Both the position numbers and the translations under genes were made by a program. From the NCBI GenBank assembly GCA_902576785.1, contig CACGWC010000006.1, forward strand, positions 1 through 64,000: DNA of 64,000 nt. The letters run 5' to 3'. The notes beneath the pieces are model-generated. The model did no database searches. It was given only the letters and a program-made list of their open reading frames with translations, and was not told the DNA's origin. Every line of letters starts with the position of its first letter. The first letter of the stretch is position 1. Shown here in pieces: positions 56,913-60,261 of this stretch. The stretch comes from an uncultured Pelagibacteraceae bacterium. GTDB lineage: Bacteria > Pseudomonadota > Alphaproteobacteria > Pelagibacterales > Pelagibacteraceae.

Positions 56913-57443
56913 AGATATATTTACTATATATTAATATAATACTTTAATTAATTGCTGTAAACCATTGTATTTATTGAATTTAATATAATATCTAAAAAGT
57001 AGTTTTATTTATATAAAATACAAAATAATGAAATAAATTAGAAAATTTTCAATTAAATCAGCTTTGGTAACTTAAAATAAATAATAAATATGCAGTTATT
57101 TGAACTCTAAAAAATAGATATTAAAATTGGATTATGAAATAGGGAACAATAATTCAATAAAATCAATAATTATTAGGAAATTTTAGAGCAGAGCTATTGA
57201 TAATGAAAGCTCAGTTTTAATTTGATATCGAAATTCCTTAATATTGATTGATATAAATATACAAAAAAATAATAATTTTCTTAATAATTAGCTAAGTAAT
57301 GCAATTTATGAATATAGCGTTTAATGCCCCAAATATAGGGCTTATTTAGAGATTTCAATTTAAAAGCTGCAACCAATAGGGGAAATTGAAATTGTAATAC
57401 TAAATATTGTTAAAATTAAAAAAAACGTTGGTATTGCTAGCTT
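56913..57443. other. Gene-free AT-rich stretch of 531 nt
   Basis: No ORF of convincing length or composition is present in either strand. It contains a 10-bp inverted repeat at 57352-57392, a GCCC/GGGC pair at 57326-57341 and a GAGCT/AGCTC pair near 57190-57213. It is unusually long for this compact region and borders the ogt-integrase section, so it may be decayed accessory DNA. Confidence 0.6.
57352..57392. repeat. 10-bp perfect inverted repeat with 21-nt loop
   Basis: ATTTCAATTT (57352-57361) is followed after 21 nt by its exact reverse complement AAATTGAAAT (57383-57392). A GCCC/GGGC hairpin lies just upstream (57326-57341). Together they could be part of a transcript end or a small RNA, but there is no T-run and no further evidence. 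Confidence 0.5.
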
Positions 57444-57719
57444 TTAGAGCAAAATTCCTTCAGATTCGAGTAGTTTTTTCTTGGTTTTTATACCACCTTT
57501 GCCAGAATATCCTCCAAGAGATCCGTCGGACCTGATTACTCTATGACAAGGGATTTTAGGAGCATATGGGTTTTTTCCAATAGCATTAGCTACAGCTCTA
57601 ACAGCTTTAGGCTTATTAATTCCCTTTGCAACGTCAGAATAGGTTAAAACACTACCTTTTTGAATTTTTTTTAAATATTTCCAGACTTTAATTTGAAATT
57701 TTGTACCTTTAAGGATCAT
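57444..57719 (-). CDS. ogt: Methylated-DNA-[protein]-cysteine S-methyltransferase, C-terminal-domain-only form
   Basis: The protein repairs O6-alkylguanine by transfer of the alkyl group to its own cysteine. From ATG 57719 it has 91 aa: FQIKVWKYLKKIQKGSVLTY, NPYAPKIPCHRVIRSDGSLG with the acceptor Cys, and GYSGKGGIKTKKKLLESEG. The PCHRV Cys is kept, so it is not an alkyltransferase-like (ATL) protein. The N-terminal domain of Ogt is absent. The frame stays open 31 more codons, but those run through the structured RNA candidate and have unlike composition. A T9 tract stands directly before the ATG. Confidence 0.85.
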   Translation of the reverse strand: MILKGTKFQIKVWKYLKKIQKGSVLTYSDVAKGINKPKAVRAVANAIGKNPYAPKIPCHRVIRSDGSLGGYSGKGGIKTKKKLLESEGILL

Positions 57720-57720
57720 A

Positions 57721-57900
57721 TAAAAAAAAACCCTGTATCTCTGCACCCTTTCAGGTACAAAGATCAGTAGTTTTTGGCACGTCGTTGTATGCGCTACCGC
57801 CATGCCTTCCACCCCGCAATTTTAGCGCTACTCTGCGTGGTTTTCTGCCCTCTGGGCTTGAATCTCTCGATTTTTCCCCAGATGGTCAGTTAAGAGTTGC
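57721..57900 (-). ncRNA. Candidate structured RNA, class not recognised
   Basis: Of positions 57731-57890, 82 of 160 bases are G or C, far above the surroundings. On the minus strand, hairpins are CTGGG(57881-57877)/CCCAG(57856-57852) enclosing AATC-GAGA-GATT, CCAC/GTGG (57840-57837 with 57812-57809), GGCAT/GTGCC (57806-57802 with 57780-57776), and TGTACC-T-GAAA-G-GGTGCA (57759-57742). It ends with T9 (57730-57722). GNRA loops appear only on this strand, which sets the orientation. A further perfect hairpin CTCTTAA/TTAAGAG (57901-57919) may be its 5' end. I could not match tmRNA, RNase P, SRP or 6S RNA. Confidence 0.6.
57722..57759 (-). terminator. Terminator-like hairpin plus T9 directly before the ogt ATG
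   Basis: Minus strand: TGTACC/GGTGCA stem closed by a GAAA loop (57759-57742), 11 nt spacer with CAGGG, then nine T residues (57730-57722). An alternative pairing of ACCTG with CAGGG would disrupt the first stem. It could end the structured RNA, or act as an attenuator or ribosome-site switch for ogt. The spacer is longer than in a classic intrinsic terminator. Confidence 0.45.
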
Positions 57901-58001
57901 CTCTTAATTCATTTAAGAGATTATCATAGTGCAAATATGATTAGTATCACTTTATAGTTGATTATTAAGGGTTTTTAACAGCTGTGAATAGCGTTAACAA
58001 A

Positions 58002-58181
58002 TTATCTAGGTCCAACGAAAATTAGAATAAAATAAGATAAATAGAAAATTATTGTTAAAACAGACAAAAAATATACTTCTAATGATTTTCCATTTTTTTT
58101 GTAAACTAAATAACTCAATATAGTTAAACCTAAAGATATAATTAAAAAATAGCTTGTAGGAACTTCACCATCTATAGTCAT
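58002..58181 (-). CDS. Small membrane protein of 59 aa, two predicted helices
   Basis: An ATG at 58181 opens 59 codons ending TAA at 58004-58002. The product has a polar start (MTIDGEVPTS), a hydrophobic helix (YFLIISLGLTILSYLVY), a short basic linker (KKNGKSLEV) and a second helix (YFLSVLTIIFYLSYFILIF), ending VGPR. The two-helix layout with a positive loop is protein-like. It lies about 100 nt upstream of the structured RNA on the same strand. No homologue is recognised, and chance in AT-rich DNA is not excluded. Confidence 0.5.
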   Translation of the reverse strand: MTIDGEVPTSYFLIISLGLTILSYLVYKKNGKSLEVYFLSVLTIIFYLSYFILIFVGPR

Positions 58182-58264
58182 AAAATTTTTGTTTTAATTC
58201 ATTTGACATTTAAAATCACTTAATATATTATTAATGATAATTAATTGTTATCAATAGTAATTAT

Positions 58265-59218
58265 ATGAATGAACTGACAACAGACCTAAAATCGCTTCAT
58301 GAGGCAACTTTAAATAACCTTAAAAGCTCAAAGGCAAATAACACTTTAAGAGCTTATAAATCTGACTTTAAAGATTTTGGAGCTTTTTGTGCTAAGCATG
58401 GATTAGATTCATTACCATCAGAGCCAAAAATAGTTTCCTTATACCTAACCCATCTATCTAAAAACTCAAAAATAAGTACTTTAAGACGTAGATTAGTATC
58501 AATAAGCATGGTTCATAAGCTTAAAGGACATTACTTAGACACAAAACATCCAATCATCGTTGAAAATTTAATGGGAATAAGAAGGGTCAAAGGAAGTATT
58601 CAGAAAGGTAAAAAACCGTTATTAATCAATCATTTAAAAACAATTATTAATGTAATAAATGAACAAAAAACTTACGAAATAAAAAAACTAAGAGATAAAT
58701 CAATAATCTTAATTGGCTTTGGAGGAGGCTTTAGAAGAACTGAGCTCATTTCAATTGATCATGAGGATTTAGAATTTGTTCCTGAGGGCCTAAAGATCAC
58801 TGTTAAAAGATCAAAAACTGACCAATTCGGAGAAGGAATGACTAAAGGGCTACCCTATTTCGATAATAAAATTTACTGTCCTGTTACAAATCTAAAAAAA
58901 TGGTTAGAAATTTCTAAAATTAAGTCTGGACCTATTTTTAGAAGATTTTCTAAAGGTTTATCATTAACAGACAAAAGATTAACCGACCAATCTGTAGTTT
59001 TATTAATGAAAGACTATTTAAAGTTAGCAGGTATCGAAAACAAAAATTTTTCAGGTCATAGTTTAAGGTCGGGTTTTGCAACAGTGGCTGCTGATTCTGG
59101 TGCTGATGAGCGAAGCATAATGGCTATGACAGGTCATAAAACGACTCAAATGGTTAGAAGATATATTAGAGAAGTAAATATATTTAAAAATAATGCATTA
59201 AATAAAATTAAATTATAA
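58265..59218 (+). CDS. Tyrosine recombinase/integrase
   Basis: The 317-aa protein has an N-terminal SAM-like core-binding domain (about 10-110, NTLRAYKSDFKDFGAFCAKH) and a catalytic domain with all key residues: Arg in GGGFRRTELIS, the HxxR in SGHSLRSGFATVAADSG, His in MTGHKTTQMV and Tyr in RRYIREVN. It is phage- or island-type rather than XerC/XerD by length and neighbourhood. It is a lone integrase; no excisionase, phage genes or clear att repeats were found. It converges with the glycosyltransferase (5-nt gap). Confidence 0.9.
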   Translation: MNELTTDLKSLHEATLNNLKSSKANNTLRAYKSDFKDFGAFCAKHGLDSLPSEPKIVSLYLTHLSKNSKISTLRRRLVSISMVHKLKGHYLDTKHPIIVENLMGIRRVKGSIQKGKKPLLINHLKTIINVINEQKTYEIKKLRDKSIILIGFGGGFRRTELISIDHEDLEFVPEGLKITVKRSKTDQFGEGMTKGLPYFDNKIYCPVTNLKKWLEISKIKSGPIFRRFSKGLSLTDKRLTDQSVVLLMKDYLKLAGIENKNFSGHSLRSGFATVAADSGADERSIMAMTGHKTTQMVRRYIREVNIFKNNALNKIKL

Positions 59219-59223
59219 TAATA

Positions 59224-60261
59224 TTAAATTAGCTCATATCTGTATCTATCAATTTTTTTTGAAATATAATTATTCGTTAAGTAAAAATGTTTATAAATCG
59301 TTTTTTGTAATGATTTTTTTAAAGTTTCATTTTTAATAAGTTTTTCGATTGAATTTTCAATATTTTTAACTTTTAAAGATTTTATCTTCAGAGCTTTTGG
59401 AGATGCCTCACTAAGTCCACCTTTATCTGTAATAATTACAGCACATCCTGCACTTGAAGCTTCTAAAGCAGTTCTTCCAAAGGGTTCATCCCATCGAGAG
59501 CAAACAACTGAAATATCTGATTTTACAAACCATCTTGTTACAGTATTATATTTTTGAAAACCTAAAATTTTCAAATTTTTGTGTTCAAAAATGTGATTTT
59601 CTCTAGGTTCATCACCAATAACAACGGCTTTCCAATAAGGATTATTATTTAATACATTTATAATAGCCTTTCCAAATAAATCATAACCTTTAGAGGAATT
59701 TAATCTACCAACAAACAAAATTATTTTTTTTTTATTTTTAAAATTAATTATTTTTTTACTTGTTGATTGATTAATAACTTCAAGTTTATTCGTATTGTAT
59801 TTTTTATTTAAACCTTTCATAAATTTATTTAGAGTCCAATTACTATTAAATATTATTTTTTTTGTTTTGTTATATATATTAATTCTTTCCTTCACTGTTT
59901 TCGATGATTTCATTTCTAGTGGATTATTATGAAAATATAGAACGATATTATTATTTATATCATAAATAGAATTTATATAATCCGGTCTATTATGTATTTC
60001 TATTAAATTTGATTTTTTTATTTTTTCAATATCCAGAAATTTTTTTACATATGCTTTACTACTGCTTCTGAAGAATATTTTCGAAAAATTTAAATTAGTA
60101 TAATTAGGTAATAATTTTTTTTTAAAAGATGTATTACCATATACTTGAATATTTTTTTTGTATTTACTTAGTTTGATTGTATCGTTTAAAAAAAGGGAAA
60201 CTGCACCTGCATAATTTGGGGTAAAATTTTCTTTGTAAGGAAGTAGAATTGAGATTTTCAT
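59224..60261 (-). CDS. Glycosyltransferase, GT4-like (GT-B fold)
   Basis: The 345-aa protein has an N-terminal half starting MKISILLPYKENFTPNYAGA. The C-terminal half has the donor-site pattern IILFVGRLNSSKGYDLFG and WDEPFGRTALEASSAGCAVI with the EPFG/E-x7-E region. The sugar and acceptor are unknown. It is not near other polysaccharide genes; ugd and galU at 4-6 kb could supply its donor. It begins right after the stop of the GIY-YIG gene, so co-transcription with it and tRNA-Glu is likely. Confidence 0.88.
   Translation of the reverse strand: MKISILLPYKENFTPNYAGAVSLFLNDTIKLSKYKKNIQVYGNTSFKKKLLPNYTNLNFSKIFFRSSSKAYVKKFLDIEKIKKSNLIEIHNRPDYINSIYDINNNIVLYFHNNPLEMKSSKTVKERINIYNKTKKIIFNSNWTLNKFMKGLNKKYNTNKLEVINQSTSKKIINFKNKKKIILFVGRLNSSKGYDLFGKAIINVLNNNPYWKAVVIGDEPRENHIFEHKNLKILGFQKYNTVTRWFVKSDISVVCSRWDEPFGRTALEASSAGCAVIITDKGGLSEASPKALKIKSLKVKNIENSIEKLIKNETLKKSLQKTIYKHFYLTNNYISKKIDRYRYELI

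What the first reader, a model, noticed from the sequence alone, without database searches (positions are those of the whole stretch)
57721..57919. Unclassified G+C-rich structured RNA candidate upstream of ogt
In an AT-rich genome, a 160-nt island with 82 G/C bases, four or more hairpins, two GNRA loops (GAGA, GAAA) and a terminal T9 is the classical sign of a structured RNA. I could not match it to tmRNA, RNase P RNA, SRP RNA or 6S RNA by their conserved sequences. It lies between a 59-aa membrane ORF and ogt, next to a tyrosine recombinase.
Basis: partly seen in the sequence, partly recalled or inferred. Interest (0 to 1): 0.7.

Follow-up and report, generated by a model that had tools for sequence, protein, structure and literature searches.

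The report
IMES-2 small RNA of SAR11 bacteria
The G+C-rich patch is a known but unexplained ocean RNA called IMES-2, sitting as its own small gene in a marine SAR11 bacterium, and comparing about ninety relatives shows that two of its loops pair with each other, a feature absent from the structure line that the library search returned.

Summary
In detail: 57731-57890 has 82 G+C of 160, the maximum of the window. It is not unclassified: Rfam places IMES-2 (RF02035) at 57774-57914 minus, 141 of 141 model positions, 162.9 bits against a cut-off of 54.7. The minus strand folds far better than shuffles (z -6.35). R1, a model built here, finds it in 259 of 397 genomes of the host's family and 3 of 385 of the class, all in that family. 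Added here: (1) the loops of hairpins 3 and 4 form a loop-loop helix, usually 5-7 bp, with compensatory changes; (2) upstream elements, RNA and 3' hairpin stay together in three gene neighbourhoods (ogt; mnmA; selO side), so it is not simply an ogt leader; (3) DnaA-box-like sites, at most one mismatch, in 52 of 55 non-redundant upstreams; (4) in six IMES-2-less congeners ogt directly follows the small ORF. Best explanation: a standalone, compactly folded, trans-acting small RNA of unknown partner. Transcription, DnaA control and mode of action are inferred.

The parts
57774..57914 (-). IMES-2 RNA core (RF02035), hairpins H1-H4
   Evidence: cmscan 162.9 bits, model 1-141/141, E 5.8e-43
57890..57907 (-). 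H1, 7-bp hairpin with GCAA (GNRA) loop
   Evidence: Rfam structure; 99.7% of cells paired, 5 of 7 pairs with double changes; coordinates
57845..57889 (-). H2, long hairpin with GAAA/CAAG internal loop and GAGA (GNRA) apical loop
57842..57844 (-). invariant AAA joining H2 and H3
   Evidence: 3 columns invariant in 92 distinct sequences
57811..57841 (-). H3, hairpin whose loop carries GCGCUA (57828-57823)
57776..57806 (-). H4, hairpin whose loop carries UAGCGC (57796-57791); one drawn pair is a fixed mismatch
57791..57828 (-). loop-loop (kissing) helix, 57828-57823 with 57796-57791
   Evidence: covariation with slid and shuffled controls; loop-swap and self-pairing comparison
57722..57775 (-). 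H5 3' hairpin (57775-57726) and T9 (57730-57722), probable intrinsic terminator; outside the Rfam model
   Evidence: 64-nt downstream stretches fold at mean -22.4 kcal/mol in 93 loci against -8.4 for mononucleotide shuffles; the simple terminator scan found none
57923..57950 (-). promoter-like pair GTGATA, 16 nt, TATGAT (9 of 12); an extended -10 a few bases downstream is an alternative reading
   Evidence: one of 9 promoter-like sites in 57600-58260, 3.6 expected
57946..57960 (-). conserved upstream element CAACTATAAAGTGAT
   Evidence: its RGNGAT part lies 34-37 nt before the RNA core in 55 of 55 non-redundant upstreams; only exact match of CAACYAWWARGTGAT in this genome
57983..57991 (-). DnaA-box-like CTATTCACA (one mismatch to TTWTNCACA); the more distal copy (57992-58000, TTGTTAACG) is degenerate here
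57444..57719 (-). ogt, downstream gene; ATG 2 nt after the T run
   Evidence: PF01035 E 7.4e-33, sequence
58002..58181 (-). 59-aa ORF, upstream neighbour; 282 bp separate its stop from the ogt ATG
   Evidence: (no Pfam match)
58265..59218 (+). tyrosine recombinase, divergent neighbour
   Evidence: PF00589 E 5.9e-19

Best explanation
The feature is the gene for IMES-2, a small RNA of roughly 190 nt of the SAR11 family Pelagibacteraceae, on the minus strand, with its own promoter and its own 3' hairpin. It folds into hairpins H1-H4 plus the 3' hairpin; the loops of H3 and H4 pair with each other, usually over 5-7 bp, which together with GNRA-capped H1 and H2 should give a compact shape. Because the whole unit (upstream elements, RNA, 3' hairpin) stays together while the surrounding genes change, it most likely acts in trans and not as a leader of ogt. 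The most likely mode of action is as a shaped RNA that binds a protein (sequestration or scaffold) rather than as a simple antisense RNA. Shown: family membership, structure, loop-loop covariation, independence of context, 3' hairpin, conserved upstream DNA. Inferred: transcription and its ends, termination, control by DnaA, trans action, protein binding.
For: Rfam match 162.9 bits against 54.7. Minus-strand fold z -6.35. Covariation: 92 distinct sequences, 93.8% of cells paired, 649 double-change cells against 168.7 in shuffles; slid structures 31-41% paired. Loop-loop helix: 94.4% of cells paired in the 6-pair version, 84.0% in the 7-pair version, where two pairs carry 15 and 19 double-change sequences, 0 of 500 shuffles reach the covariation score, and slid versions pair at most 51%. 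Over 40 distinct loop pairs the mean longest Watson-Crick run is 5.9 bp against 4.3 when loops are swapped between RNAs; in the 16 pairs whose loop 3 pairs with itself over fewer than 5 bp it is 5.9 against 3.8. Contexts over 94 loci: mnmA upstream in 42 (next gene convergent in 40), ogt downstream in 42, SNase-like/SRAP in 6, selO in 3, one cut by a contig end; the next gene is convergent in 47 of 94. 3' structure: mean -22.4 against -8.4 kcal/mol. One copy in every matching genome listed. Upstream elements recur across contexts.
Against: No transcript was seen with these tools. No protein partner or target is known. In the window ogt starts 2 nt after the T run, so read-through could couple IMES-2 to ogt. 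The simple terminator scan found nothing; only 43 of 93 loci have at least 6 T in the 12 nt after the first predicted hairpin, and a cut-off of -8 kcal/mol does not discriminate (93 of 93 loci, but also 248 of 465 shuffles). Many congeners lack the RNA, so it is not indispensable in the genus. For the loop-loop helix alone, the number of pairs with double changes and of pair types is reached by 134 and 163 of 500 shuffles; 3 of the 16 non-palindromic loop pairs keep a run of only 4 bp. The upstream element gave no regulon, and no exact DnaA box was found around dnaA in 6 of 8 loci. The 94 sequences were hand-picked for variety out of 246 IMES-2 loci held.
Confidence: 0.6

Rival explanations
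1. Base-pairing (antisense) small RNA: IMES-2 pairs with mRNAs, perhaps with Hfq, through its unpaired segments; the hairpins only stabilise it.
For: Own promoter-like elements, 3' hairpin plus U run and a location independent of one target gene are typical of such RNAs. Unpaired conserved bases exist.
Against: The conserved unpaired bases are short runs, mostly A, or lie in GNRA and internal loops, and the longest loop motifs are complementary to each other.
Confidence: 0.3
2. The loop-loop pairing is intermolecular: IMES-2 works as a dimer, loop 3 of one copy on loop 4 of another.
For: Covariation cannot tell intra- from intermolecular pairing; the linker between H3 and H4 is only 4 nt in the window and loop 3 is a palindrome in the commonest version.
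Against: Loop 3 to loop 3 pairing as the conserved contact is disfavoured: 16 of 40 distinct loop pairs have a loop 3 self-run under 5 bp, and 13 of these 16 keep a loop 3-loop 4 run of 5 bp or more. A swapped dimer remains open.
Confidence: 0.2
3. Cis-acting leader or attenuator of ogt (riboswitch-like).
For: In the window's genus IMES-2 lies directly upstream of ogt on the same strand (42 of 94 loci); in the window the T run ends 2 nt before the start codon.
Against: In 47 of 94 loci the next gene is convergent. In six congeners ogt stands without the RNA.
Confidence: 0.07
4. A DNA element (recombination or DnaA-titration site) whose RNA structure is incidental.
For: Tyrosine recombinase nearby in the window's genus; conserved DnaA-box-like sites.
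Against: Compensatory changes that keep RNA pairs, G-U included; recombinase not beside IMES-2 in the mnmA and selO-side loci; about 222, 234 and 671 kb from dnaA in three single-contig genomes.
Confidence: 0.03

Closest known systems
IMES-2 RNA motif, Rfam RF02035
   Same: Full-length match to the covariance model, same four hairpins
   Different: Described here with a loop 3-loop 4 helix, a fifth 3' hairpin and conserved upstream DNA, none of which is in the 141-position nested model as cmscan prints it. Whether the Rfam seed or the original paper annotates a pseudoknot could not be checked
Adjacent hairpins joined by kissing loops, as in purine riboswitches (recalled)
   Same: Two neighbouring hairpins with complementary apical loops
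   Different: Usually 5-7 consecutive Watson-Crick pairs; no ligand or regulated downstream gene is implied
6S RNA and CsrB-type protein-sequestering RNAs (recalled)
   Same: Standalone, structured, trans-acting in the proposed mechanism
   Different: No Rfam match to any such family; by eye, not tested, no repeated GGA hairpins and no long open bubble

Membership tests
IMES-2 (RF02035) | Covariance-model score above the curated cut-off | tested here: met
   162.9 bits against 54.7, whole model
IMES-2 (RF02035) | Four nested hairpins with covariation | tested here: met
   A2 was aligned to a model of this structure, so the counts lean towards it; A1 (MAFFT, no structure) agrees
IMES-2 (RF02035) | Found in marine bacteria | tested here: met
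   119 of 119 named loci held are titled Pelagibacteraceae or Pelagibacterales; the marine habitat of SAR11 is recalled
IMES-2 (RF02035) | Expressed RNA | not testable with these tools
   no expression data; abundance of IMES RNAs in the ocean is recalled from Weinberg et al. 2009, which is not held
tmRNA, RNase P RNA, SRP RNA, 6S RNA | Match to their covariance models | tested here: not met
   only IMES-2 matched in 57400-58200, also at E up to 5; ARAGORN found no tmRNA in the window
Cis-regulatory leader / riboswitch | Constant downstream gene on the same strand | tested here: not met
   ogt downstream in 42 of 94 loci, convergent gene in 47 of 94
DnaA-regulated gene | DnaA boxes at the promoter | tested here: inconclusive
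   52 of 55 upstreams within one mismatch, 20 exact, but DnaA binding not shown and exact boxes absent around dnaA in 6 of 8 loci

The most novel reading that the evidence does not exclude
IMES-2 is a replication-linked small RNA of SAR11: DnaA binds two box-like sites about one helical turn apart upstream of its promoter and sets its level, and the RNA, held in a compact kissing-loop fold, sequesters a protein so that growth of these streamlined cells follows chromosome replication; some Pelagibacter lineages have discarded it.
Probability: 0.15. Interest if true: 0.7.

Novelty: new member of a known kind. Interest (0 to 1): 0.42.

Why it matters
SAR11 bacteria are among the commonest cells in the sea (recalled) and IMES-2 is one of their unexplained RNAs. 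The loop-loop helix, the gene boundaries, the conserved upstream DNA and the natural presence/absence contrast within one genus turn a Rfam entry of unknown function into something that can be probed, mutated and screened for partners.

Tried and rejected
Rejected: ogt riboswitch as the family's function (context); other Rfam families. Phage or plasmid carriage found no support: two exact patterns gave 0 in viral contigs (each fits only some of the known variants), and blastn of 180 bases gave no match in 50,697 phage and 72,556 plasmid records. A promoter pattern allowing 3 mismatches was no better than chance in the window as a whole (2 found, 2.37 expected). A search for other genes sharing the upstream element found no regulon: exact matches in 6 of 24 genomes, 3 of them at IMES-2 itself (of 12 IMES-2-bearing genomes searched); the backward control pattern hit 6 times. 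An origin-of-replication link was not supported. Divergent copies in IMES-2-less genomes: model R1 found nothing below E 0.1 in 22 genus-g1 and 13 other-family genomes and found both positive controls.

Literature, open-licence PMC library only: IMES-2 (1 paper, giant squid; passage seen); IMES-1 or noncoding RNA or Pelagibacter, two of three (34 papers, 20 listed, none of those listed holding IMES-1); SAR11 + small RNA + IMES (0); IMES-1 + structured RNA (0); IMES + Rfam (5; by listing only the squid paper concerns the RNA); SAR11 + noncoding RNA + metatranscriptom (4); Pelagibacter + sRNA + Hfq (4); 'Exceptional structured noncoding RNAs' + Pelagibacter (2); psRNA/SAR11/Station ALOHA, two of three (139, 10 listed). 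Passages seen: PMC2704228, PMC2864571, PMC5069720, PMC6962438; a term search of PMC2996960 returned no passage. The original description, Weinberg et al. 2009 Nature, is not held and is recalled only. In the passages and listings seen I met no description of a loop-loop helix in IMES-2.

Rows dropped and limits: IMES-2 loci held number 246 (67 + 119 + 30 + 30), some of them the same genome place fetched twice; one search printed 80 of the 119 named ones and only these 80 were used. L066 (contig edge) and L017 were left out of the alignment. The 94 loci of A2 were chosen by hand. One of 94 was dropped for short downstream and one for short upstream; 93 upstreams were thinned to 55 below 70% identity. 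One search used mononucleotide shuffles. Searches over more than 40 genomes used stricter filters. The element consensus CAAYNANWNRGTGAT was derived from the sequences on which it was counted, so its shuffle test is circular; the DnaA consensus TTWTNCACA is recalled from the literature.

Full report
Observation. The region is real and exceptional within the window: 82 of 160 bases at 57731-57890 are G+C, rank 1 of 6384 stretches of 160 nt taken every 10 nt, in a window of 27.9% G+C. The minus strand is the more strongly folded one: z -6.35 (57721-57914) against -3.93 for the plus strand (57721-57919).

Identity. cmscan places IMES-2 (RF02035) at 57774-57914 minus, over the whole model, 162.9 bits against a gathering score of 54.7; no other Rfam family appears in 57400-58200 even at E up to 5. 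ARAGORN sees no tmRNA.

Distribution. RF02035 matches 200 of 397 genomes of the order (75 of 151 at least 90% complete) and, among the nearest genomes, 21 of 37 of the same genus (own genome included) and 0 of 24 of a second family of the order. With model R1, built here from 27 divergent copies, 259 of 397 genomes of the family match, in 12 of 14 genera, and 3 of 385 of the class, all three in that family. These samples overlap, many genomes are incomplete, and these calls used the stricter filters. Every matching genome listed has one copy. Of the seven single-contig genomes of the window's genus listed (177 non-matching genomes were not listed), only one has the RNA; its absence from the other six was repeated with laxer filters and with R1 (in one search two of the six gave only sub-threshold matches, best E 0.67).

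Empty site. In 12 of 12 IMES-2-less genomes of the genus ogt is present. Reading the sequences by eye, in six of them (L082-L087) the region upstream of the recombinase, a small ORF like the window's 59-aa ORF and ogt follow each other with no room for the RNA; in the other six (L076-L081) ogt follows another gene that looks like an acetyltransferase (not scanned). In the window 282 bp lie between the small ORF and ogt, and this interval holds the upstream elements, the RNA and the 3' hairpin.

Contexts. Over 94 loci: mnmA upstream in 42, ogt downstream in 42, SNase-like gene upstream with SRAP downstream in 6, selO upstream in 3, one cut off by its contig end. The SNase-like arrangement has selO two genes further upstream, so these last two are one neighbourhood, and three distinct neighbourhoods remain. 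The next gene is convergent in 47 of 94. Pfam confirms the neighbours in representatives. A leader role for ogt cannot be the family's function; an extra coupling to ogt in this genus is not excluded.

Structure. On A2 (94 matches, 92 distinct) the nested hairpins plus the loop-loop helix have 93.8% of cells paired, 36 of 45 pairs with double changes and 649 double-change cells (shuffles 168.7); sliding the partners drops pairing to 31-41%. A2 was fitted to the nested structure; the structure-free alignment A1 of 27 sequences gives 93.5% and 32 of 45. One drawn pair of H4 is never a standard pair (0 of 92), so H4 contains a fixed mismatch.

Loop-loop helix. Loop 3 GCGCUA faces loop 4 UAGCGC. 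The two sides change together: GUGCUA/UAGCAC, GUACUA/UAGUAC, GUUCUA/UAGAAC, GAACUA/UAGUUC, GCACU/AGUGC, UCGCUG/UAGCGA. In 93 of 94 rows at least 5 of 7 positions pair (G-U included). The loop-loop pairs were not part of model R1, so its alignment does not favour them. In A2 two pairs carry 15 and 19 double-change sequences; the covariation score is 0.204 against 0.097 in shuffles (0 of 500) and at most 0.086 in slid versions. Two measures are less clear: the numbers of pairs with double changes and of further pair types are reached by 134 and 163 of 500 shuffles. Over 40 distinct loop pairs the longest Watson-Crick run is 4 bp in 3, 5 in 9, 6 in 19, 7 in 8 and 8 in 1. Because the commonest loop 3 is a palindrome, self-dimerisation was tested: 16 of 40 distinct loop pairs have a loop 3 self-run under 5 bp; their loop 3-loop 4 run averages 5.9 bp against 3.8 (maximum mean 5.1) after swapping, and 13 of the 16 keep 5 bp or more. 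A loop 3-loop 4 contact is therefore the conserved one; whether within one molecule or between two is open. Ten rows of one type pair weakly (4 Watson-Crick plus one G-U).

Gene boundaries. A 3' hairpin outside the Rfam model is predicted: the 64-nt stretches after H4 fold at mean -22.4 kcal/mol in 93 loci against -8.4 for mononucleotide shuffles, and T-rich DNA follows in many but not all (43 of 93 with at least 6 T in 12); the simple terminator scan missed it in the window. Upstream, an element of consensus CAACTAAAAAGTGAT keeps its RGNGAT part 34-37 nt before the core in 55 of 55 upstreams (searched within 25 nt), and the window has a promoter-like GTGATA-16-TATGAT at 57950-57923, one of 9 such sites where 3.6 are expected. 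Further upstream, 52 of 55 sequences have a site within one mismatch of the DnaA box TTWTNCACA (20 exact), against 10.9 (0.7 exact) in shuffles; 25 start at -89 to -83, 25 at -79 to -74 and 2 elsewhere. Each sequence was counted once; that both registers are often filled in the same upstream is read, where the second copy is the weaker. The background in the surrounding DNA of 80 loci is 0.005 exact per 75 nt and strand. This makes a DnaA link worth testing but does not show it: dnaA is not near, exact boxes around dnaA are missing in 6 of 8 loci and no regulon emerged.

Function. The pattern (one copy, own promoter-side and 3' elements, location-independent, loop-loop fold, invariant A-rich joints and GNRA loops) suits a shaped trans-acting RNA that binds a protein better than a pure antisense RNA. 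I put identity at 0.99, the loop-loop helix at 0.93, the standalone gene at 0.9, and protein binding as the main mode at about 0.4; these are judgements.

Verdict. On re-checking, the count of neighbourhoods was lowered from four to three and the GAAA loop was re-assigned to the 3' hairpin; neither changes the odds.

Noticed in passing
window 58265-60261 and loci L001-L050, far side of the recombinase: In the window's genus the tyrosine recombinase is found again and again beside IMES-2 while the ORFs beyond it fall into different clusters between genomes, as at the edge of a variable island.
   Followed up: no
window 58002-58181 (minus); loci L002-L062: The small ORF between recombinase and IMES-2 belongs to cluster c3 in many genomes but is replaced by other small ORFs or by two ORFs (clusters c5, c6) in others; no Pfam match for the window copy.
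   Followed up: partly
L051-L060, L245-L268: In the mnmA arrangement the mnmA reading frame ends 50-95 nt before the RNA core, so the DnaA-box-like sites overlap or abut its end.
   Followed up: partly
L063-L065, L067, L270-L274: A divergent IMES-2 form in genera g5 and g11 lacks the GAGA-capped upper part of hairpin 2 but keeps the loop 3-loop 4 complementarity.
   Followed up: partly
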